Origin: Porphyromonas uenonis DSM 23387 = JCM 13868
GTDB lineage: Bacteria; Bacteroidota; Bacteroidia; Bacteroidales; Porphyromonadaceae
NCBI RefSeq assembly: GCF_000482365.1
Contig: NZ_KI535308.1
Coordinates: forward strand, 183,823 to 247,822
Direction: 5' to 3'
Length of the DNA stretch: 64,000 nt
Positions 24,659 to 33,939 of the stretch are shown one piece after another. Numbering within the stretch: position 1 is the first letter of the stretch; the number at the start of each line of letters is the position of its first letter. Position numbers and translations under genes: made by a program. The notes under the pieces are model-generated. The model saw nothing but the letters and a program-made list of their open reading frames with translations, was not told the origin of the DNA and did not search any database.

Positions 24659-24666
24659 TACCTTTG
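24659..24666 (+). promoter_or_regulatory. Putative -7 box of the decayed kinase-LRR gene
   Basis: TACCTTTG, with about 110 bases of leader. The region from here to the start codon is nearly identical to 27623-27742 upstream of the intact paralogue, which marks the left edge of the duplicated block. Confidence 0.65.
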
Positions 24667-24778: not shown

Positions 24779-27469
24779 ATGCAGTACCCATTATTGTCGG
24801 AGTATGTCAGTGCAATCACGCATGCGAGTGAAAATCTAGACCAGTTGAAGCATCTAGAGGTGGTGCAGGACGAGCATGGTGAGCCAAAACACAAGGCTTA
24901 TCGCAAGATCGAGGAGAAGCTGGAGGTGGCTGGCACGACCTACTTCACCTCGATGCGCTACTACGAGCGTGAGCTCTTTGTAGATAGCAGTGTGAGTAGC
25001 GAGTCGGAGTTCCCTGTACTACTGATGGATTGGGTCGAGGGGAGTACGATGGAGCTGTACATTCGTGAGCATTATCGGGACTCGTACGCTATGGAGATGC
25101 TCTGCTACCGCTTCTGCCGACTAGCAGCCTACCTGCGCAGTCAGCCCTTTGCCCATGGCGATGTGAAGCCGGACAACATTATGGTCTCCGACACGGGTAC
25201 GCTCACGCTGATTGACTATGATGGTATGTTTGTACCCAGCATGCAGGGTGAAAGTTCGCCAACGCTAGGCACGGAGGAGTTTCGTCATCCGCTTCGCACC
25301 CCTGAGCTATTTGACGCTACGATCGATGACTTTGCGCTAGCCTCCATTGCGCTCTCGCTACGAGCCATCGCTTTGGACTCGCAGTTGCTCGACCAGTACG
25401 GTGCTCCCGACCGTCTCCTCTTCAGTGCCAGCGACTACCGCGACTTAGCTCAGAGCAAGGTGATGCAAGCTATCTGGAAGCTCGTCGGGGACAAGGATCT
25501 CTGCAAACTTGTAGGGCTCTTCGTCTTAGCGCACGCAGAGCAAAGCCTCGCTTCCACCTCCTTCCAGCTCTTCTCCACGACCCGCCCCGAGAAGCCCGTC
25601 GTTGTGCCACTCTCTACCGAAGTCACAGACGAAGACCTCGCCGAAGTCTACATCGATGAGTATGGCGTCAAATTCAGTCCTGATCGCAAGCGCTTACTAA
25701 GAGCCCCTGACGATCTAGTCTCCTATACGATACCAAATACAGTTATAGTCCTCTGTGATAGAGCGTTCTTTCATTGCAAAAGTCTTACCTCGTTGACGAT
25801 TTCTAACTCAGTCACCTCCATTGGAGACAGTGCATTCTCAGGTTGCTATAGCCTTACCTCGTTGACAATTCCCAACTCTGTCTCATCCATTGGAGATAGT
25901 GCATTTTGGGATTGCAAGAGTCTTACCTCGTTGACGATTCCAAGCTCCGTCACTACCATTGGAGCCAATCCCTTTAGTGTTTCAAAGTTTAAGTTGTGTA
26001 ATCGATCCACACACTTTTACGTGGAGGATAATGTTCTTTTTACAGCTGATAAGAGTCAACTCATAGCCTATTGCTCTACCCAAGCTTTTTATAGTATTCC
26101 CAATTCTGTCACCTCAATTGGCGATTGTGCATTCTTGGGTTGTTCGAGTCTAACTTCGTTGACGATCCCAGATTCAGTCACCTCCATTGGAGACTGTGTG
26201 TTTTGGCATTGTTCTAGTCTTACTTCGTTGACGATTCCTAACTCTGTCACCTCCATTGGAGATAGCACATTTAGGGGATGCTCGAGTCTTACCTCGTTAA
26301 CGATTCCCAACTCTGTCACCGCCATTGGTGATTGTGCATTCTCGGGTCTTACCTCGTTAACGATTCCCAACTCTGTCACCGCCATTAGCGATTGTGCATT
26401 CTTGGGTTGCTCGAGTCTAACCTCGTTGACAATTCCCAACTCTGTCACTTCCATTGGTGATAGTGCATTTTATTGGTGTTCTAATCTTATCTCGTTGACG
26501 ATTCCTAACTCTGTCACCTCCATTGGAGGCTGTGCGTTTTGGGGTTGTTATAGTCTTACTTCGTTGACGATTTCTAACTCTGTCACCTCCATTGGAGATA
26601 GCACATTTAGGGGATGCTCGAGTCTTACCTCGTTAACGATTCCCAACTCTGTCTCCGCCATTGGCGATTGTGCATTCTTGGGTTGCTCGAGTCTAACCTC
26701 GTTGACGATACCCGCCTCTATCTCATTCATTGGAAACAGTTCATTCTCAGGTTGCTCCAGCCTTACCTCGTTGACGATACCCGACTCAGTCTCATCCATT
26801 GGCAATAGTGCATTTGATGGTTGCTCTAGTCTTACCTCGTTGACGATTCCCGACACTGTCACCTCCATTGGCGACTATGCATTTGAAAACTGCTCTAGTC
26901 TTACCTCGTTGACGATCCCTAACTCAGTCACTTCCATTGGAAAAGGTGCATTTGAGGATTGCTCTAGTCTTATATCGTTGACGATCCCCAACTCAGTCAC
27001 ATCCATTGGTGATAGTGCGTTTAAGAACTGCTCTAATCTAACCTCATTGACGATTCCTAACTCTATTACAACAGTTGGATCTAATCCATTTAGAAGGCTA
27101 ACTCTTCAGTTAGATAATCGATCTCCACACTTTTATGTGGAGGACAATGTCCTCTTTACAGCTGATAAGAGTCAACTCATAGCCTATTGCTCTACCCAAG
27201 CTTCTTATAGTATCCCCAACTCTGTCACCTCCATTGGAGACAGTGCATTTGAGGGCTGTTCTAATCTTACCTCGTTGACGATACCCGACTCTGTCACCTC
27301 TATTGGAAAGAGCGCATTCATACATTGCTCTCGTCTTACCACGTTGACGATTCCTGACTCTGTTACCTCCATAGGAAAAGGAGCTTTGTATGGATGCGAT
27401 AATCTTAACCAGCCCACTAGAGAGGAACTAAAGGATAGATTTGGGATACGAATCTTTGGGCTGTGGTGA
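24779..27469 (+). CDS. Kinase-LRR paralogue with a deleted ATP-binding lobe (likely pseudokinase)
   Basis: An 896-residue protein closely matching the intact paralogue at 27743 but with an in-frame net loss of 33 residues after P36. The deletion removes the glycine-rich loop (SSGAFAVVF) and the ATP-anchoring lysine (ALK). The catalytic loop HGDVKPDN and metal motif DYDG remain. From about residue 315 it carries 22 BspA-type LRR_5 units of 23 residues, SLTSLTIPNSVTSIGDSAF-like, interrupted twice by a NRSPHFYVEDNVLFTAD-type segment. No signal peptide is present. The frame is open throughout, so a regulatory pseudokinase is possible, but the stub gene after it argues for decay. Confidence 0.85.
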   Translation: MQYPLLSEYVSAITHASENLDQLKHLEVVQDEHGEPKHKAYRKIEEKLEVAGTTYFTSMRYYERELFVDSSVSSESEFPVLLMDWVEGSTMELYIREHYRDSYAMEMLCYRFCRLAAYLRSQPFAHGDVKPDNIMVSDTGTLTLIDYDGMFVPSMQGESSPTLGTEEFRHPLRTPELFDATIDDFALASIALSLRAIALDSQLLDQYGAPDRLLFSASDYRDLAQSKVMQAIWKLVGDKDLCKLVGLFVLAHAEQSLASTSFQLFSTTRPEKPVVVPLSTEVTDEDLAEVYIDEYGVKFSPDRKRLLRAPDDLVSYTIPNTVIVLCDRAFFHCKSLTSLTISNSVTSIGDSAFSGCYSLTSLTIPNSVSSIGDSAFWDCKSLTSLTIPSSVTTIGANPFSVSKFKLCNRSTHFYVEDNVLFTADKSQLIAYCSTQAFYSIPNSVTSIGDCAFLGCSSLTSLTIPDSVTSIGDCVFWHCSSLTSLTIPNSVTSIGDSTFRGCSSLTSLTIPNSVTAIGDCAFSGLTSLTIPNSVTAISDCAFLGCSSLTSLTIPNSVTSIGDSAFYWCSNLISLTIPNSVTSIGGCAFWGCYSLTSLTISNSVTSIGDSTFRGCSSLTSLTIPNSVSAIGDCAFLGCSSLTSLTIPASISFIGNSSFSGCSSLTSLTIPDSVSSIGNSAFDGCSSLTSLTIPDTVTSIGDYAFENCSSLTSLTIPNSVTSIGKGAFEDCSSLISLTIPNSVTSIGDSAFKNCSNLTSLTIPNSITTVGSNPFRRLTLQLDNRSPHFYVEDNVLFTADKSQLIAYCSTQASYSIPNSVTSIGDSAFEGCSNLTSLTIPDSVTSIGKSAFIHCSRLTTLTIPDSVTSIGKGALYGCDNLNQPTREELKDRFGIRIFGLW

Positions 27470-27487
27470 CCAACGAATTACAACAAT

Positions 27488-27616
27488 ATGATTATCGTAG
27501 CGAATAGGCGCAGGAAGCAAGAGAAGCTACTGCAGGAGTACCCAGGAGCGATTATTGAGGGTATAAAACGCAAGACGGAAAGGCATGTATCGAACACAAC
27601 CCCTCTTATAGGCTAA
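27488..27616 (+). pseudogene. Truncated copy of the DUF6939-like gene
   Basis: ATG at 27488, 18 bases after the kinase stop, the same spacing as in the intact cassette. The first 23 codons (MIIVANRRRKQEKLL..) match the gene at 30887, then the homology ends at about 27557 and the frame stops after 42 codons. The promoter of the next kinase gene follows directly. It is the remnant of a duplicated cassette. Confidence 0.88.
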
Positions 27617-27622
27617 ATGTGT

Positions 27623-27630
27623 TACCTTTG
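27623..27630 (+). promoter_or_regulatory. Putative -7 box of the intact kinase/DarT-VWA/PP2C operon
   Basis: TACCTTTG with a leader of about 105 bases that is conserved with the upstream copy. No clear -33 TTTG is visible, which could mean an activator is used. Confidence 0.65.
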
Positions 27631-27742
27631 TGAGGAGAGGGCGGAGAGGGACGACAGCTATTGCGTTTCAGCGGGATGTACCCCCTTCCTCTTCGCTTTG
27701 CGCAACGATTGAAGGTGTCATATAGAGAGATAATCTAAAGAG

Positions 27743-30700
27743 ATGCAGTACCCATTATTGTCGGAGTATGTCAGTGCGATCACGCATGCGAGTGAAAATC
27801 TAGACCAGTTGAAGCATCTAGAGGTGGTGCAGGACGAGCATGGTGAGCCGTACCGCAGTAGCGGAGCCTTTGCCGTGGTCTTTAAGATGCGCGATCCTCG
27901 CACGGGGCAACTCTATGCGCTCAAATGCTTTACCGAGGAGCAGGAGGGACGTGCAGAAGCTTATCGCAAGATCGAGGAGGAACTGGAGGTGGCTGGCACG
28001 ACCTACTTCACCTCGATACGCTACTATGAGCGTGAGCTCTTTGTAGATAGCAACGTGAGTAGCGAGTCGGAGTTCCCTGTTCTGCTGATGGATTGGGTCG
28101 AGGGGAGTACGATGGAGCTGTACATCCGTGAGCATTATCGGGACTCGTACGCTATGGAGATGCTCTGCTACCGCTTCTGCCGACTAGCAGCTTACCTGCG
28201 CAGTCAGCCCTTCGCCCATGGCGATGTGAAGCCGGACAACATTATGGTCTCCGACACGGGTACGCTCACGCTGATTGATTACGATGGAATGTTTGTGCCC
28301 AGCATGCAGGGCGAAAGTTCGCCAACGCTAGGCACGGAGGAGTTTCGTCATCCGCTTCGCACGCCTGAGCTGTTTGACGCTACGATCGATGACTTTGCGC
28401 TAGCCTCCATCGCGCTCTCACTACGAGCCATCGCCTTAGACTCGCAGTTGCTCGACCAGTACGGTGCTCCCGACCGTCTTCTCTTCAGTGTCAGCGACTA
28501 CCGTGACTTAGCCCAGAGCAAGGCGATGCAAGCCATCTGGCGACTCGTCGGGGACAAAGATCTCTGCAAACTTGTGGGACTCTTCGTCTTAGCGCACGCA
28601 GAGCAAAGCCTCGCCAGCACCTCCTTCCAGCTCTTCTCCATGACCCGCCCCGAGAAGCCCGTCGTCGTGGCACTCTCCACCAAAGTCACAGACGAAGACC
28701 TCATCGAAGCTTACATCGACGAGTATGGCGTTGGGTTTAACTCAGATCGCAAGCGCCTACTAGAAGCCCCTAGCGATCTATTCTCCTATACGATACCTGA
28801 CACTGTTACAACCATCTGCGATAGAGCATTTGCGGATTGCGATAGTCTTACCTCGTTGATGATTCCCGACTCTGTCACCTCCATTGGCAACGAAGCATTC
28901 TATTGGTGCAAGAGTCTTACCTCGTTGACAATTCCCAAGTCCGTTACAACAGTTGGATCTAATCCATTTAGAGCGCTAACTCTTCAGTTAGATAATCGAT
29001 CTCCACACTTTTACGTAGAGGATAATGTACTCTTTACAGCTAACAAGAAGCAACTCATAGCTTATTGCTCTACCCAAACTTCTTATAGCATCCCCAATTC
29101 TGTCATCTCCATTGGAGATAGTGCATTCTATCAATGCTTGAGTCTTACCTCGTTGACGATTCCTGACTCAGTCACCACCATTGGAAACGAAGCATTCTTT
29201 TGGTGCAAGCGTCTTACCTCGCTGACGATTCCCGCCTCTGTCTCATCCATTGGTGATAGTGCATTCTCCAGTTGCTCTAGTCTTACCTCGTTGACGATAC
29301 CCGCCTCTGTCTCATCCATTGGAAACCGTTCATTCTCAGGTTGCTCTAGCCTTACCACGTTAACGATTCCCAACTCTGTCACCTCCATTGGTGATAGCGC
29401 ATTCTCTTGGTGCAAAAGCCTTACCTCGTTGACAATTCCCAACTCTGTCACCTCCATTGGTTACAGGGCATTTGAGAATTGTTCTAGTCTTACCTCGTTG
29501 ACGATTCCCGACTCTGTCACCTCCATTGAAGACAGTACATTTGTGCTTTGCTCTAGTCTTACCTCGTTGACGATTCCTGACTCAGTCATCTCCATTGGAG
29601 ATAGTGCTTTCTCCAGTTGCTCTAGTCTTACCTCATTGACGATTCCCAACTTTGTCACCTCCATCGGAGATCGTGCATTCGCAGGTTGCTCTAGTCTTAC
29701 CTCATTGACGATTCCTAACTCTGTCACTTCCATTGGTTACGGAGCATTCTCTTGGTGTTATAGTCTTACCTCGTTGACGATTCCTGACTCAGTCACCTCC
29801 ATTGGAGATAGTGCTTTTAAGAATTGCTCTAGTCTTACCTCGTTGACGATTCCCAACTTTGTCACCTCCATTGGAGACGATGCATTTGATGGTTGCTCTA
29901 ATCTCACCTCGCTGACGATTCCTGACTCCGTCACCGTCATTGGAAACAATGCATTTAAGGGTTGCTCTAGTCTCACCTCGTTGACGATTCCTGACTCCGT
30001 CACCGTCATTGGAAACAATGCATTTAAGGGTTGCTCTAGTCTCACCTCGTTGACGATTCCTGACTCCGTCACCGTCATTGGAAACAATGCATTTAAGGGT
30101 TGCTCTAGTCTCACCTCGTTGACGATTCCTGACTCTGTCACATTCATTGGAAATAGCGCATTCTGGGGCTGCTCTAGTCTTACCTCGTTAACGATTTCCA
30201 ACTCTGTCACAACCATTGAAGATTATGCATTCTATGAATGCAAGAGTCTTACCTCGTTGACAATCCTCAACTCTGTCACCTCCATTGGAGGCTCCGCATT
30301 TGAGTATTGCTCTAGTCTTACTTCGTTGACAATTCCCAACTCTGTCACCTCCATTGGATACAGAGCATTTGGTGATTGTAAGGGTCTTACCTCATTAACG
30401 ATTCCCAACTCTGTCACTTCCATCGAAAACTATGCGTTCTCAGGATGCTCTAGTCTTATCTCGTTGACGATTCCCAACTCTGTTACCTCCATTGAAGGTT
30501 GTACATTCTATAATTGCAAAAGTCTTACCTCGTTGACGATTCCAGACTCTGTTACTTCCCTTGGAGATTGGGCATTCAATGGTTGCTCCAGCCTTACCTC
30601 GTTAACGATTCCCAACTCTGTCACCTCCATCGGAGACTATGCGTTCTCAGAATGCTCTAGTCTCACCTCGTTGACGATTCCTGACTCCGTCACCGCCATT

Positions 30701-30868
30701 GGAAGCTCCGCATTTAAGTATTGCTCTAGTCTTTCCTCGTTGACGATCCCAGACTCCGTCACCTCCATTAGCAGAGGAGCTTTGCATGGATGCGATAATC
30801 TTAACCTGTCCACTAAAGAGGAGCTGAAAGATAGATTTGGGGATCAAATCTTTTGGCGCGGGTGGTGA
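27743..30868 (+). CDS. Cytoplasmic protein kinase with 28 BspA-type leucine-rich repeats
   Basis: A 1041-residue protein. Residues 35-270 form a protein-kinase-like domain: glycine loop SSGAFAVVFKM (39-49), lysine K61 in ALK, catalytic loop HGDVKPDN (159-166, an HGD variant of HRD) and metal motif DYDG (179-182). A linker leads to 28 LRR_5 units of 23 residues from about residue 345. BspA-type repeats are usually on secreted surface proteins, but here there is no signal peptide and no sorting domain, so the protein should be cytoplasmic. It heads an operon with a DUF6939-like protein, a DarT-VWA fusion and a PP2C phosphatase. A sensor-kinase role is inference. The repeat DNA is more AT-rich than its neighbours. 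Confidence 0.9.
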   Translation: MQYPLLSEYVSAITHASENLDQLKHLEVVQDEHGEPYRSSGAFAVVFKMRDPRTGQLYALKCFTEEQEGRAEAYRKIEEELEVAGTTYFTSIRYYERELFVDSNVSSESEFPVLLMDWVEGSTMELYIREHYRDSYAMEMLCYRFCRLAAYLRSQPFAHGDVKPDNIMVSDTGTLTLIDYDGMFVPSMQGESSPTLGTEEFRHPLRTPELFDATIDDFALASIALSLRAIALDSQLLDQYGAPDRLLFSVSDYRDLAQSKAMQAIWRLVGDKDLCKLVGLFVLAHAEQSLASTSFQLFSMTRPEKPVVVALSTKVTDEDLIEAYIDEYGVGFNSDRKRLLEAPSDLFSYTIPDTVTTICDRAFADCDSLTSLMIPDSVTSIGNEAFYWCKSLTSLTIPKSVTTVGSNPFRALTLQLDNRSPHFYVEDNVLFTANKKQLIAYCSTQTSYSIPNSVISIGDSAFYQCLSLTSLTIPDSVTTIGNEAFFWCKRLTSLTIPASVSSIGDSAFSSCSSLTSLTIPASVSSIGNRSFSGCSSLTTLTIPNSVTSIGDSAFSWCKSLTSLTIPNSVTSIGYRAFENCSSLTSLTIPDSVTSIEDSTFVLCSSLTSLTIPDSVISIGDSAFSSCSSLTSLTIPNFVTSIGDRAFAGCSSLTSLTIPNSVTSIGYGAFSWCYSLTSLTIPDSVTSIGDSAFKNCSSLTSLTIPNFVTSIGDDAFDGCSNLTSLTIPDSVTVIGNNAFKGCSSLTSLTIPDSVTVIGNNAFKGCSSLTSLTIPDSVTVIGNNAFKGCSSLTSLTIPDSVTFIGNSAFWGCSSLTSLTISNSVTTIEDYAFYECKSLTSLTILNSVTSIGGSAFEYCSSLTSLTIPNSVTSIGYRAFGDCKGLTSLTIPNSVTSIENYAFSGCSSLISLTIPNSVTSIEGCTFYNCKSLTSLTIPDSVTSLGDWAFNGCSSLTSLTIPNSVTSIGDYAFSECSSLTSLTIPDSVTAIGSSAFKYCSSLSSLTIPDSVTSISRGALHGCDNLNLSTKEELKDRFGDQIFWRGW
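29917..30123 (+). repeat. Three identical 69-bp LRR units
   Basis: Starts at 29917, 29986 and 30055 show three perfect 69-bp tandem copies, encoding LRR units with the motif SVTVIGNNAFKGCSSLTSL. Neighbouring units differ at many positions, so this is a recent expansion. Confidence 0.95.
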
Positions 30869-30886: not shown

Positions 30887-31549
30887 ATGATTATTGTAGC
30901 GAATAGGCGCAGGAAGCAAGAGAAGCTGCTGCAAGAGTACCCAGGAGCGATTATCGTGGACATAACGAGCAAGGCGGAGGAGCCGTTGGTGAAGCTGAGT
31001 CCGTTTTATCCACATGGGGGGATCCCGATACCCTTCTCATCGCCTGCCACGGGTGCTTCCGTAGAGGGAATTTGGCAGGGACTCAAGGTCTTTGAGTCGG
31101 TCGGTATAGACCGTGAGGTGATCCAGAAGAGCTCTATGAAGGGGCTGAAGCGGAGCGTGCGTCGCTTCGGACCGCCACGGGGGCATCAGCGTGGGCTGAA
31201 CAGCTCGGAGCTACTCGACTACATGACAGCTCGGCGTGAGATCTACCTACCGACCTATCGCTGGGTGTTAGAGCACAAGGTACTATGGATCATAGAGCGC
31301 CTGCGGGCTGCTGACCGTGCTGGCAAGACGATCATCTTACTAGACTATAATAGTAGTACCGATGTGGACGACCCGAAGAAGCCACTCTCGCATGCTTACC
31401 TTGTGAAGGCTTATGCTGAGGGGCTCTACCCCTACGAGGATGCTATCGGCCTGGAGGAGCCTATCTCTAAGATTTCTATGAAGCAGGTAGTGCCTAGCGA
31501 TGAAGAGCGGGGTATCATACAGACGACACTTTTTGGAGAGGAGCTATAA
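30887..31549 (+). CDS. Unknown protein, DUF6939-like
   Basis: A 220-residue soluble protein. It begins MIIVANRRRKQEKLLQEYPG, followed by SPFYPHGGIPIPFS, EGIWQGLKVFES and a later IILLDYNSS. I recall similar proteins under the name DUF6939, but that assignment is from memory. The early VDIT and late IILLDYN strands suggest a small alpha/beta fold. It lies 18 bases after the kinase and 21 bases before the DarT-VWA gene, so it belongs to the cassette. Its truncated copy at 27488 shows that it was part of the duplicated unit. No function can be assigned. Confidence 0.8.
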   Translation: MIIVANRRRKQEKLLQEYPGAIIVDITSKAEEPLVKLSPFYPHGGIPIPFSSPATGASVEGIWQGLKVFESVGIDREVIQKSSMKGLKRSVRRFGPPRGHQRGLNSSELLDYMTARREIYLPTYRWVLEHKVLWIIERLRAADRAGKTIILLDYNSSTDVDDPKKPLSHAYLVKAYAEGLYPYEDAIGLEEPISKISMKQVVPSDEERGIIQTTLFGEEL

Positions 31550-31570: not shown

Positions 31571-33034
31571 ATGAATAAGAGAGCAAACTGGCAAGAGTTT
31601 AAGGCGGTGCTGGATAGCCACGGCATTACGAAGCTATACCACTTTACCGATCGAGATAATCTAGAGCAGATCATACAGCATAGGGGACTCTACTCATGGC
31701 AAGACTGCAAGGAGCGAGGGATACAGATCCCGAAGCCTGGAGGTGGTGGCCCAGGTTCCCTATCCTGGTCACTAGATGAGCGTAGCGGGCTAGAGCACTA
31801 TGTGCGTGTGAGCTTTACTAAGGAGCACCCGATGATGTATGTGTCAATGAATGACGGACGTATCTCTAACCCAGTAGTGCTGGAGATAGACCCTGAGGTA
31901 ATCTATGACACGAATAGCCTATATGCTGATCGCAATGCTACGAGTAATGGGGTGCAGTGTGGAGGAGATCTGAGTAACTTCAAACAGATTCACTTCACGT
32001 CTGTCAAGGCACGAAAGCACTTCGACCTAGATGCTGATGAGCAGCCATACTATCAGGCAGAGGTGTTGGTGAAGAACTTCATCCCGCTACAGTACATCAC
32101 CAATATCTCTAACTTTGGCATCCCAATCCCCTCACAGCCTACACAGCTTCAAAGCAAAAATGCCTACACAGCTCGCATCACACGCGAGCACCCCTCTGCC
32201 TTTATATTCCTAGTGGATCATAGCGTCTCCATGCGTAGCATTACTACCCTCAACGGGGAGCGTATGACCCTCTCGGAGGCTGTGGCTCGCATTGTCAATA
32301 ATCAGATTGATGAGTTGGTAGAGCGCTGCGTACGTGCTAACGAGACGCGTCACTACTTTGACATAGCCGTCGTGGGCTATGGCGAGGAGGCGTACAGTGG
32401 TTGGAATGGAGCCTTGGCTGGTCGAGGCTTCGTGACGCCTGAGGAGATCCGATTTAATGAGTACAAGAAGATCAAGGTCAAGGAGCAGGTGCGGACTAGA
32501 GCTGGTGTGAAGGAGATCGAGGTCGAGAAGAAGCAGTGGATGGAGGCTCGTCATGATGGTCACTGGACGCGTATGGACAAGGCGTTTAAGCATGCTGAGG
32601 GGCTACTAGACGATTGGCTTTCTCGCCATCAGACGCAGGACTGCTATCCTCCTATTGTCATCAACATAACGGACGGCGAGTACAATGGAGCCTCTCGTGA
32701 CGAGATGCAGCAGCTAGCCAATCAGCTGAAGTCGAAGTTTACGAATGATGGAAATGTGCTCCTCTTCAACATCCATATCGTCTCTGGAGAGATGGAGGCG
32801 ATCCTATTCCCTGCGACCATTGGAGAGATGCGTGGTAATGGGTATGGAGAGTCACTCTTTGAGATGTCTAGCTTGCTACCTCTAAACTACAATGAGCAGA
32901 TTCGTATGCTCTTTCACGATAGAGATCAAGACATACGCTACCGTGCGATGGGTGTAAACGCTGGCATGGAGCAACTGGTGAAAATGATGAAGATAGGCAC
33001 GCTGTCAAGTGCCTTAGTACAGCAGTCTATATGA
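31571..33034 (+). CDS. DarT-like ADP-ribosyltransferase fused to a VWA domain
   Basis: A 487-residue protein of two parts. Residues 15-185 resemble DarT (DUF4433), the ssDNA-thymidine ADP-ribosyltransferase: KLYHFTDRDNL (21-31), RGLYS, an NPVVLEID strand, and QAEVLVKNFIPLQYI with E164 at the position expected of the catalytic glutamate. Residues 208-470 are a von Willebrand A domain with metal-site motif D216-x-S218-x-S220, a threonine at about 333 and TDGE (367-370). The DarT assignment rests on motif likeness only; the substrate could be DNA, RNA or protein. No DarG macrodomain antitoxin is nearby. Its stop overlaps the phosphatase start by ATGA. Confidence 0.8.
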   Translation: MNKRANWQEFKAVLDSHGITKLYHFTDRDNLEQIIQHRGLYSWQDCKERGIQIPKPGGGGPGSLSWSLDERSGLEHYVRVSFTKEHPMMYVSMNDGRISNPVVLEIDPEVIYDTNSLYADRNATSNGVQCGGDLSNFKQIHFTSVKARKHFDLDADEQPYYQAEVLVKNFIPLQYITNISNFGIPIPSQPTQLQSKNAYTARITREHPSAFIFLVDHSVSMRSITTLNGERMTLSEAVARIVNNQIDELVERCVRANETRHYFDIAVVGYGEEAYSGWNGALAGRGFVTPEEIRFNEYKKIKVKEQVRTRAGVKEIEVEKKQWMEARHDGHWTRMDKAFKHAEGLLDDWLSRHQTQDCYPPIVINITDGEYNGASRDEMQQLANQLKSKFTNDGNVLLFNIHIVSGEMEAILFPATIGEMRGNGYGESLFEMSSLLPLNYNEQIRMLFHDRDQDIRYRAMGVNAGMEQLVKMMKIGTLSSALVQQSI

Positions 33035-33939
33035 ATAGAGAGAGACAGATAAGGCGTAAGAGGCGCACAAGGCTACGTAGACGAGCACGACGAAAAGCAT
33101 CCCTTGCTCAGCCCCCTAAGATGACTAAGCTTAACTATCGTCTGGCCTCAATAGCTAAACCTGGCGAGGAGACTCCTAATGAGGATTCTGCCTATATAGA
33201 CGCCTCCTGCCTAGCACTGTCTGATGGTGCTGGCGGGTGTGGGCTCTATGCGGATAGATGGTCTCACTATCTCGTGAGCCAGCTGGATAAGCAGACTCCG
33301 CTCATGGGCTATGAGGCTTTAGATAGTTGGGTGGAGCAGATTTGGCAGCCATTTTACAACGACTGTGAGGCTATGGCAAAGGAGGGGGATGCGATGCTCC
33401 TGAATAAGTTTTACAGTGAGGGATCTTGTGCTACGCTGGTAGCAGCTTGGATCGGTGATAATAGAGAGTGCCGATGGATAGCCTACGGGGATAGTGTCCT
33501 CTTTCACTACAATAGAGCTACTGGTGAGCTATGGCATTCCTTTACGAGCGTTGCAGACTTCGACAATCCGCCCCACTTGATAAGTTGCAAGGATCCGTTG
33601 ACGCCAGCAGGCTTTAGCGAGGGAAGCCTAGCACTCACGGAGAGTAGTGTGCTATTTGCTGCGAGTGATGCGCTCTCTTGCTTTGTCCTCATGATGTATC
33701 AAGTCTCTCGATGGACGGAGTATGCGGACGAACTGGAAGTACTGATAGCCGAGCATAGCTCTGGTAGCCATAGGGTACAACTGGCTCGAGCGATGAAGTT
33801 TGACTTCTACGAGGATGTCTTGAAGCGGCTGATCGATAGCGCCTCTAGTGCGGAGACCTTTGCTCAGCAGATGCACGCTTGGCTCGATGCGGGGTTGCTG
33901 GAGCTAGATGACTATACGGTCGCTTTTCTCAAATTGTAG
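33031..33939 (+). CDS. PP2C-family serine/threonine phosphatase
   Basis: A 302-residue PP2C (PPM) phosphatase: ETPNEDSAY (E51, D52), LSDGAGG (D65), GSCATLVAAWI, the YGDS motif, FAASDALS and the C-terminal DDYTVAF (D293, D294) supply the expected metal ligands. The first ~30 residues are extremely basic (RRKRRTRLRRRARRK), which may bind nucleic acid. An internal start at M31 (33121) is possible, but the four-base overlap with the previous gene supports 33031. It would reverse phosphorylation by the operon's kinase; this partnership is inferred from context. Confidence 0.92.
   Translation: MNRERQIRRKRRTRLRRRARRKASLAQPPKMTKLNYRLASIAKPGEETPNEDSAYIDASCLALSDGAGGCGLYADRWSHYLVSQLDKQTPLMGYEALDSWVEQIWQPFYNDCEAMAKEGDAMLLNKFYSEGSCATLVAAWIGDNRECRWIAYGDSVLFHYNRATGELWHSFTSVADFDNPPHLISCKDPLTPAGFSEGSLALTESSVLFAASDALSCFVLMMYQVSRWTEYADELEVLIAEHSSGSHRVQLARAMKFDFYEDVLKRLIDSASSAETFAQQMHAWLDAGLLELDDYTVAFLKL

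What the first reader, a model, noticed from the sequence alone, without database searches (positions are those of the whole stretch)
31571..33034. DarT-like domain fused to a VWA domain with no DarG antitoxin
The N-terminal KLYHFTDRDNL and the QAEVLVKNFIPLQYI block with E164 are the ends of a DarT-type fold; the C-terminal half has an intact VWA metal site (D216, S218, S220, TDGE). Canonical DarT is neutralised by the DarG macrodomain, and none is visible within the window. Control may therefore be by VWA interactions or by phosphorylation.
Basis: partly seen in the sequence, partly recalled or inferred. Interest (0 to 1): 0.75.

Follow-up and report, generated by a model that had tools for sequence, protein, structure and literature searches.

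The report
DarT1 toxin wired to TerY-P phosphoswitch

Summary
ORF 31571-33034 is a DarT domain joined to an intact-MIDAS VWA domain, and the genome has no macrodomain gene. The inference "no antitoxin" is probably wrong. By tree and key residues the DarT part is type 1 (guanine-type), and DarT1 is countered by NADAR proteins, not by the DarG macrodomain. Directly upstream (30887-31549) lies DUF6939, whose profile similarity to DarT1-associated NADARs is significant and which keeps their E-x6-K catalytic pair. All DarT-VWA relatives with enough contig have DUF6939 immediately upstream; three other DarTs without VWA have it immediately downstream. Elsewhere DUF6939 sits among ADP-ribose genes. 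The rest of the operon, a Ser/Thr kinase with LRRs and a PP2C phosphatase, completes a TerY-P triad, a known anti-phage/stress module whose output is unclear; here the output is fused on. Best model: the phosphoswitch gates a DNA guanine ADP-ribosyltransferase and DUF6939 erases leakage. This is inferred, not shown. Weak points: AlphaFold on the DarT-VWA protein failed (pLDDT 53), and the confident DUF6939 model did not match solved NADAR by Foldseek. Verdict: new variant combining two known systems; no earlier description found in the open-access papers searched.

The parts
31571..33034 (+). DarT1-type ADP-ribosyltransferase fused to TerY-like VWA (487 aa)
   Evidence: Pfam DarT 7e-40; PADLOC TerY 6e-45, DarT 4e-18
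31571..32116 (+). DarT1 domain, aa 1-182
   Evidence: profile match to E. coli C7 DarT1 8baq E 3.4e-7 over profile positions 11-178; tree
32060..32062 (+). catalytic Glu E164 (C7 DarT1 E152; the crystal chain carries E152A and aligns as Ala)
   Evidence: PMC11543638
31934..31936 (+). N122, aligned with C7 DarT1 N104 (base-coordinating Asn; His in DarT2)
   Evidence: PMC11543638
32162..33016 (+). TerY-like VWA domain, aa 198-482
   Evidence: PADLOC TerY E 6.1e-45
32216..32230 (+). MIDAS D216-x-S218-x-S220
   Evidence: invariant in 8 sequences
32669..32680 (+). VWA TDGE motif aa 367-370
   Evidence: invariant in 8 sequences
30887..31549 (+). DUF6939 protein (220 aa), NADAR-like, proposed antitoxin
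   Evidence: PF22075 E 3e-73, PF22397 NADAR-DarT1 E 0.0024; 9 of 14 family members match PF22397, best 6e-6; hhalign
31064..31087 (+). E60-x6-K67 (VEGIWQGLK), aligned with C7 NADAR E88/K95
   Evidence: invariant in 16 DUF6939 and 11 NADAR sequences
27743..30868 (+). Ser/Thr kinase with BspA-type LRRs (K2), intact G-loop and Lys
   Evidence: Pkinase 8e-13, LRR_5 2e-215; PADLOC STK_OB 9e-51 over aa 1-330
33031..33939 (+). PP2C phosphatase, overlaps DarT-VWA by 4 bases
   Evidence: PADLOC PP2C 1.8e-9; no Pfam hit at E 1
24779..27469 (+). duplicate kinase-LRR gene (K1) lacking the G-loop and Lys (33-residue in-frame gap): probable pseudokinase
27488..27555 (+). stub of a DUF6939 gene left after tandem duplication
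   Evidence: 87% identical to the K2-end/DUF6939 start
27623..27630 (+). TACCTTTG, Bacteroidota-type -7 promoter motif (TAnnTTTG) of the K2 operon; a copy at 24659 precedes K1

Best explanation
The locus is a four-gene operon (kinase-LRR, DUF6939, DarT1-VWA, PP2C) that joins a DarT1/NADAR-type toxin-antitoxin pair to a TerY-P phosphoswitch. The DarT1 domain transfers ADP-ribose from NAD+ to guanines in DNA; DUF6939 removes it and so keeps the uninfected cell alive; the VWA domain is the docking point through which kinase and PP2C set the toxin on or off. On phage infection or another stress sensed by the LRR kinase, the balance tips to active DarT1, DNA replication stalls and phage growth stops. 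Shown by sequence: the domains, intact active-site residues, the operon, the conserved pairing, DarT1 placement, DUF6939-NADAR profile similarity. Inferred: guanine specificity, antitoxin activity, phosphorylation control, phage as the trigger.
For: DarT: Pfam 7e-40; profile hits C7 DarT1 at 3.4e-7 against 0.016 for DarT2. Tree: on the DarT1/NADAR side of the split from DarT2-like DarTs (97/84); N122, M88 and E164 match DarT1 N104, M71 and E152 and are invariant in the clade (residues from PMC11543638). DUF6939: 9 of 14 members match Pfam NADAR-DarT1, best 6.1e-6; hhalign score 45.5, E 4.7e-6, 156 columns against a permutation null of mean 14.4, maximum 22.5 in 150. Adjacency: DUF6939-DarTVWA order in every relative whose contig reaches that far (L013-L018; L012 starts at DarT-VWA), and DarT-DUF6939 overlapping in three DarTs without VWA. 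DUF6939, DarT and PP2C occur in exactly the same 3 of 61 relatives. DUF6939 elsewhere lies near NADAR, ADP-ribosylglycohydrolase, Sir2, KptA and macrodomain genes. TerY-P parts; anti-phage role of TerY-P-like modules as cited in PMC11090510.
Against: The confident AlphaFold model of DUF6939 (core pLDDT about 94) had no Foldseek hit to solved NADARs although G. lovleyi NADAR 8bat is in the PDB. The DarT-VWA model failed. The Arg matching R52 of C7 DarT1 is present in the window (R71) but is Gln in two relatives. D159, the candidate for NADAR D171, is not strictly conserved. DUF6939 also occurs without a DarT neighbour. No experiment shows toxicity, antitoxicity, phosphorylation or phage defence here.
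Confidence: 0.6

Rival explanations
1. One reading: an orphan DarT whose only restraint is the VWA domain or phosphorylation; DUF6939 is an unrelated operon member.
For: No macrodomain in the genome; no Foldseek match of DUF6939 to NADAR; PADLOC and NCBIfam do not list DUF6939.
Against: DUF6939 is adjacent to DarT in every informative DarT-VWA relative, and in the opposite gene order in three other DarTs; profile similarity to DarT1-NADAR; ADP-ribose neighbourhoods.
Confidence: 0.12
2. DUF6939 is an antitoxin but works by binding DarT1 (or as an ADP-ribose eraser of a new fold), not as a NADAR-type hydrolase.
For: Foldseek found no NADAR; D171 equivalent not strictly conserved; a phage protein that blocks DarT, likely by direct interaction, is known (PMC11481870).
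Against: E-x6-K pair invariant in both families, profile similarity over 156 columns; solo DUF6939 in NAD/ADP-ribose islands with no DarT fits an enzyme better than a DarT-specific binder.
Confidence: 0.2
3. Regulated ADP-ribosylation for stress or growth control rather than phage defence: the triad tunes DNA ADP-ribosylation reversibly, as reported for Mycobacterium tuberculosis DarT (abstract of PMC12170906, listed).
For: TerY-P triads are tied to tellurite resistance as well as defence; chromosomal location with ordinary housekeeping flanks.
Against: Sporadic, all-or-none distribution among relatives and remnants in a near relative are more like a defence module.
Confidence: 0.3
4. A decaying locus with an inactive toxin.
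For: K1 has lost its ATP-binding residues and a DUF6939 stub lies beside it.
Against: K2, DUF6939, DarT-VWA and PP2C are all intact open frames with conserved active-site residues.
Confidence: 0.07

Closest known systems
DarTG1 (DarT1-NADAR, E. coli C7 / G. lovleyi; PMC11543638)
   Same: DarT1-side ART domain with matching M, N and E residues; an adjacent partner gene with the NADAR E-x6-K pair
   Different: DarT here is fused to a VWA; the partner is DUF6939, below the curated NADAR-DarT1 cut-off for the window protein (17.8 bits, cut-off 27), and lies upstream; kinase and phosphatase are in the operon
TerY-P triad / STK-OB + PP2C + TerY module (PMC11090510 and references in it; PADLOC STK_OB, PP2C, TerY)
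   Same: STK-family kinase, PP2C and TerY-like VWA in one operon
   Different: kinase carries BspA LRRs (Sel1 repeats in one relative, L018) instead of an OB-fold or zinc ribbon; VWA is fused to a toxin; NADAR-like gene added
DarTG2 (DarT2-DarG macrodomain)
   Same: DarT superfamily ART
   Different: no macrodomain in the genome; DarT domain on the other side of the DarT1/DarT2 split; base-coordinating Asn instead of His
YarT-YbiA (ART with NADAR-family antitoxin; PMC11125620)
   Same: ART toxin paired with a NADAR-superfamily antitoxin
   Different: ART family is not DarT; no phosphoswitch

Membership tests
DarT1 (guanine ADP-ribosyltransferase) | DarT/PF14487 domain | tested here: met
   E 7.1e-40; below NCBIfam toxin_DarT equivalog cut-off (53.5 of 150 bits)
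DarT1 (guanine ADP-ribosyltransferase) | catalytic Glu and base-coordinating Asn, Met, Arg (E152, N104, M71, R52) | tested here: met
   E164, N122, M88 invariant; R71 present in the window but Gln in L014/L015
DarT1 (guanine ADP-ribosyltransferase) | groups with NADAR-associated DarTs, apart from DarT2 | tested here: met
   tree, 97/84; midpoint root, one model
DarT1 (guanine ADP-ribosyltransferase) | ADP-ribosylates guanine in DNA | not testable with these tools
   needs assay
DarT1 (guanine ADP-ribosyltransferase) | ART fold in predicted structure | tested here: inconclusive
   AlphaFold model pLDDT 52.6, not used for fold search
NADAR superfamily (for DUF6939) | sequence-profile similarity to NADAR | tested here: met
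   9 of 14 members hit PF22397, best 6.1e-6; hhalign 45.5 against null max 22.5. The window protein alone is below cut-off (17.8 of 27 bits)
NADAR superfamily (for DUF6939) | catalytic E88, K95, D171 (C7 numbering) | tested here: inconclusive
   E60 and K67 invariant in 16 of 16; D159 in 12 of 16
NADAR superfamily (for DUF6939) | NADAR fold | tested here: not met
   no Foldseek hit to 8bat or other NADAR at E up to 10; so it is called NADAR-like, not a confirmed NADAR
TerY-P triad | TerY-like VWA with MIDAS, PP2C, Ser/Thr kinase of the STK_OB type in one operon | tested here: met
TerY-P triad | kinase C-terminal OB-fold or zinc ribbon | tested here: not met
   LRR_5 repeats instead
DarTG2 | DarG macrodomain antitoxin | tested here: not met
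   no PF01661 in genome

The most novel reading that the evidence does not exclude
DUF6939 founds a new, NADAR-related or new-fold family of DNA ADP-ribose erasers used as antitoxins or immunity proteins in several conflict systems (TerY-P, Zorya-like, Rhs, phages), and in this operon a kinase/phosphatase pair directly switches a DNA ADP-ribosyltransferase through its fused VWA domain, the first toxin output attached to a TerY-P triad.
Probability: 0.35. Interest if true: 0.8.

Novelty: new variant of a known kind. Interest (0 to 1): 0.62.

Why it matters
TerY-P triads are known as phosphorylation modules tied to stress and phage defence, but what they switch is unclear. A toxin fused onto the VWA component tells what this one switches and makes the idea testable with one point mutation (E164). 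It also suggests a function for DUF6939, a family Pfam lists as unknown, which recurs beside DarT1, Rhs, Zorya-like and ADP-ribose-salvage genes and in phage contigs.

Tried and rejected
AlphaFold of DarT-VWA with nine sequences: pLDDT 52.6, discarded, no fold search made. Foldseek of DUF6939 against PDB: nothing; against BFVD: six giant-virus proteins with probability 1.0, TM about 0.5, all uncharacterised, not interpretable. Phmmer and hmmsearch of DUF6939 against PDB sequences: only chance-like hits to unrelated proteins. DarT-VWA in viral contigs: none; DarT or DUF6939 in named phages: none. DarG/macrodomain partner elsewhere in the genome: excluded. DarT1-type NADAR (PF22397) in the own genome: not found by direct search at E 0.001. 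Classical YbiA-type NADAR profile (two sequences) does not align to DUF6939 (score 12.0), but neither does it to DarT1-NADAR (13.9), so that test is uninformative. Empty-site comparison in the near relative G002: contigs end or diverge near the locus; only remnants seen. Literature for DUF6939: no paper; for DarT with TerY/VWA: none relevant; open-access PMC only.

Full report
What is in the window. ORF 31571-33034 encodes 487 aa. Pfam DarT PF14487 covers aa 23-208 at E 7.1e-40; PADLOC TerY covers aa 198-482 at E 6.1e-45 and PADLOC DarT aa 20-179 at 3.9e-18. They are invariant in eight DarT-VWA proteins from Porphyromonas, Prevotella, Parabacteroides and another Bacteroidales.

The operon. Upstream by 21 bases is 30887-31549, DUF6939 (PF22075, E 3.4e-73), which also shows a sub-threshold match to PF22397, 'DarT1-associated NADAR antitoxin' (E 0.0024). 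Eighteen bases further upstream ends 27743-30868, a kinase with BspA LRRs whose N-terminal 330 aa match PADLOC STK_OB at 8.7e-51. Downstream, overlapping by 4 bases, 33031-33939 is a PP2C (PADLOC 1.8e-9). A TAnnTTTG promoter motif precedes the kinase at 27623. Kinase, PP2C and TerY-like VWA are the TerY-P triad; PMC11090510 summarises it as a hypothesised phosphorylation-dependent switch, with TerY-P-like modules shown by Gao et al. 2020 to be stand-alone anti-phage systems.

Which DarT. DarT2 is paired with the macrodomain DarG, DarT1 with a NADAR (PMC11543638). A profile of the DarT-VWA family finds E. coli C7 DarT1 (8baq) at E 3.4e-7 and DarT2 (7omv) only at 0.016. In a tree of 48 DarTs the window protein sits on one side with all NADAR-linked DarT1s, opposite the DarT2 structure and 27 other Bacteroidota DarTs (97/84). 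N122, M88 and E164 align with the DarT1 residues N104, M71 and E152 that are essential in C7. R71 aligns with R52, but two relatives have Gln there. Guanine as target is therefore expected, not shown. The absence of a macrodomain from the genome is then no surprise.

Is DUF6939 the antitoxin? Four lines of evidence. (1) Homology: nine of fourteen DUF6939 proteins match Pfam NADAR-DarT1, best 6.1e-6. Profile-profile alignment with eleven DarT1-type NADARs gives score 45.5, E 4.7e-6 over 156 columns, against a mean of 14.4, s.d. 2.7 and maximum 22.5 in 150 column permutations and 15.2 for the reversed profile; unrelated profiles score 10-13. VEGIWQGLKVF aligns with VE.AFQ.SKVF; E60 and K67 fall on the catalytic E88 and K95 and are invariant in all 16 and all 11 sequences. 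(2) Pairing: DUF6939 is directly upstream of DarT-VWA in every relative whose contig reaches that far (L013-L018); in three DarTs without VWA (L007, L010, L021) it is directly downstream, overlapping. (3) Co-occurrence: among 61 relatives DarT and PP2C are in exactly three genomes, G000, G018 and G026, the same three that have DUF6939. (4) Context: in two Bacteroidia genomes without a DarT neighbour it lies among NADAR, ADP-ribosylglycohydrolase, Sir2, KptA, NAMPT and macrodomain genes; on a Prevotella plasmid it is near ADP-ribosylglycohydrolase, NUDIX and DUF1810 genes; on a Bartonella plasmid it follows an Rhs protein. Against: the AlphaFold model of DUF6939 (core pLDDT about 94) did not retrieve solved NADARs by Foldseek, although 8bat is among the solved chains. 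So I call it NADAR-like; membership of the NADAR fold is unproven.

How it probably works. The DarT1 domain is the effector; DUF6939 removes the modification it leaves, which allows the toxin to be kept in the cell; the VWA domain brings the toxin under the kinase and PP2C. Whether phosphorylation switches the toxin on or off, and what the LRRs sense, cannot be told from sequence. The locus is sporadic among relatives and a near relative keeps only scraps of the leader and kinase, which fits a defence module.

History of the locus. The kinase is tandemly duplicated. Upstream copy K1 lacks 33 residues including the G-loop and ATP-binding lysine, and between the copies lies a stub of DUF6939 followed by a second copy of the leader. 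The duplicated unit was thus leader-kinase-start of DUF6939.

Novelty. No paper in the open-access library that these searches returned links DarT to TerY or VWA, and none mentions DUF6939; subscription papers and preprints were not searched. The parts are known kinds; the fusion and the DUF6939 assignment appear new.

Noticed in passing
window 24779-27760: Tandem duplication of leader, kinase-LRR and the first ~68 bases of DUF6939; the upstream kinase copy lacks G-loop and Lys (pseudokinase).
   Followed up: partly
L010 4739-8861 and L021 3769-7953: DarT1 with a long N-terminal extension (coiled-coil-like in L021) overlapping DUF6939, followed by ZorA-like and ZorB-like genes: a Zorya-like system with a DarT1 effector.
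   Followed up: partly
L022-L025 (viral contigs, DUF6939 at about 5000): DUF6939 alone in large viral contigs, with no DarT beside it; possibly a phage-borne counter to DarT1-type toxins.
   Followed up: no
L011 933-6549 (Bartonella plasmid): Rhs protein with a DUF7587 C-terminus, a small ORF, then DUF6939: looks like toxin and immunity.
   Followed up: no
L067 399-11812 and L068: NAD/ADP-ribose gene island: NAMPT, ADP-ribosylglycohydrolase, NADAR, DUF6939, Sir2, KptA and two macrodomains (Pfam run on L067 only).
   Followed up: partly
L018 4681-7254: The triad kinase of Parabacteroides carries Sel1 repeats in place of LRRs, so the sensor part is exchangeable.
   Followed up: no
L030 327-1490 and L026 413-1498: NADAR-linked DarT1 proteins with long N-terminal extensions of unknown kind (361-387 aa in all).
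   Followed up: no
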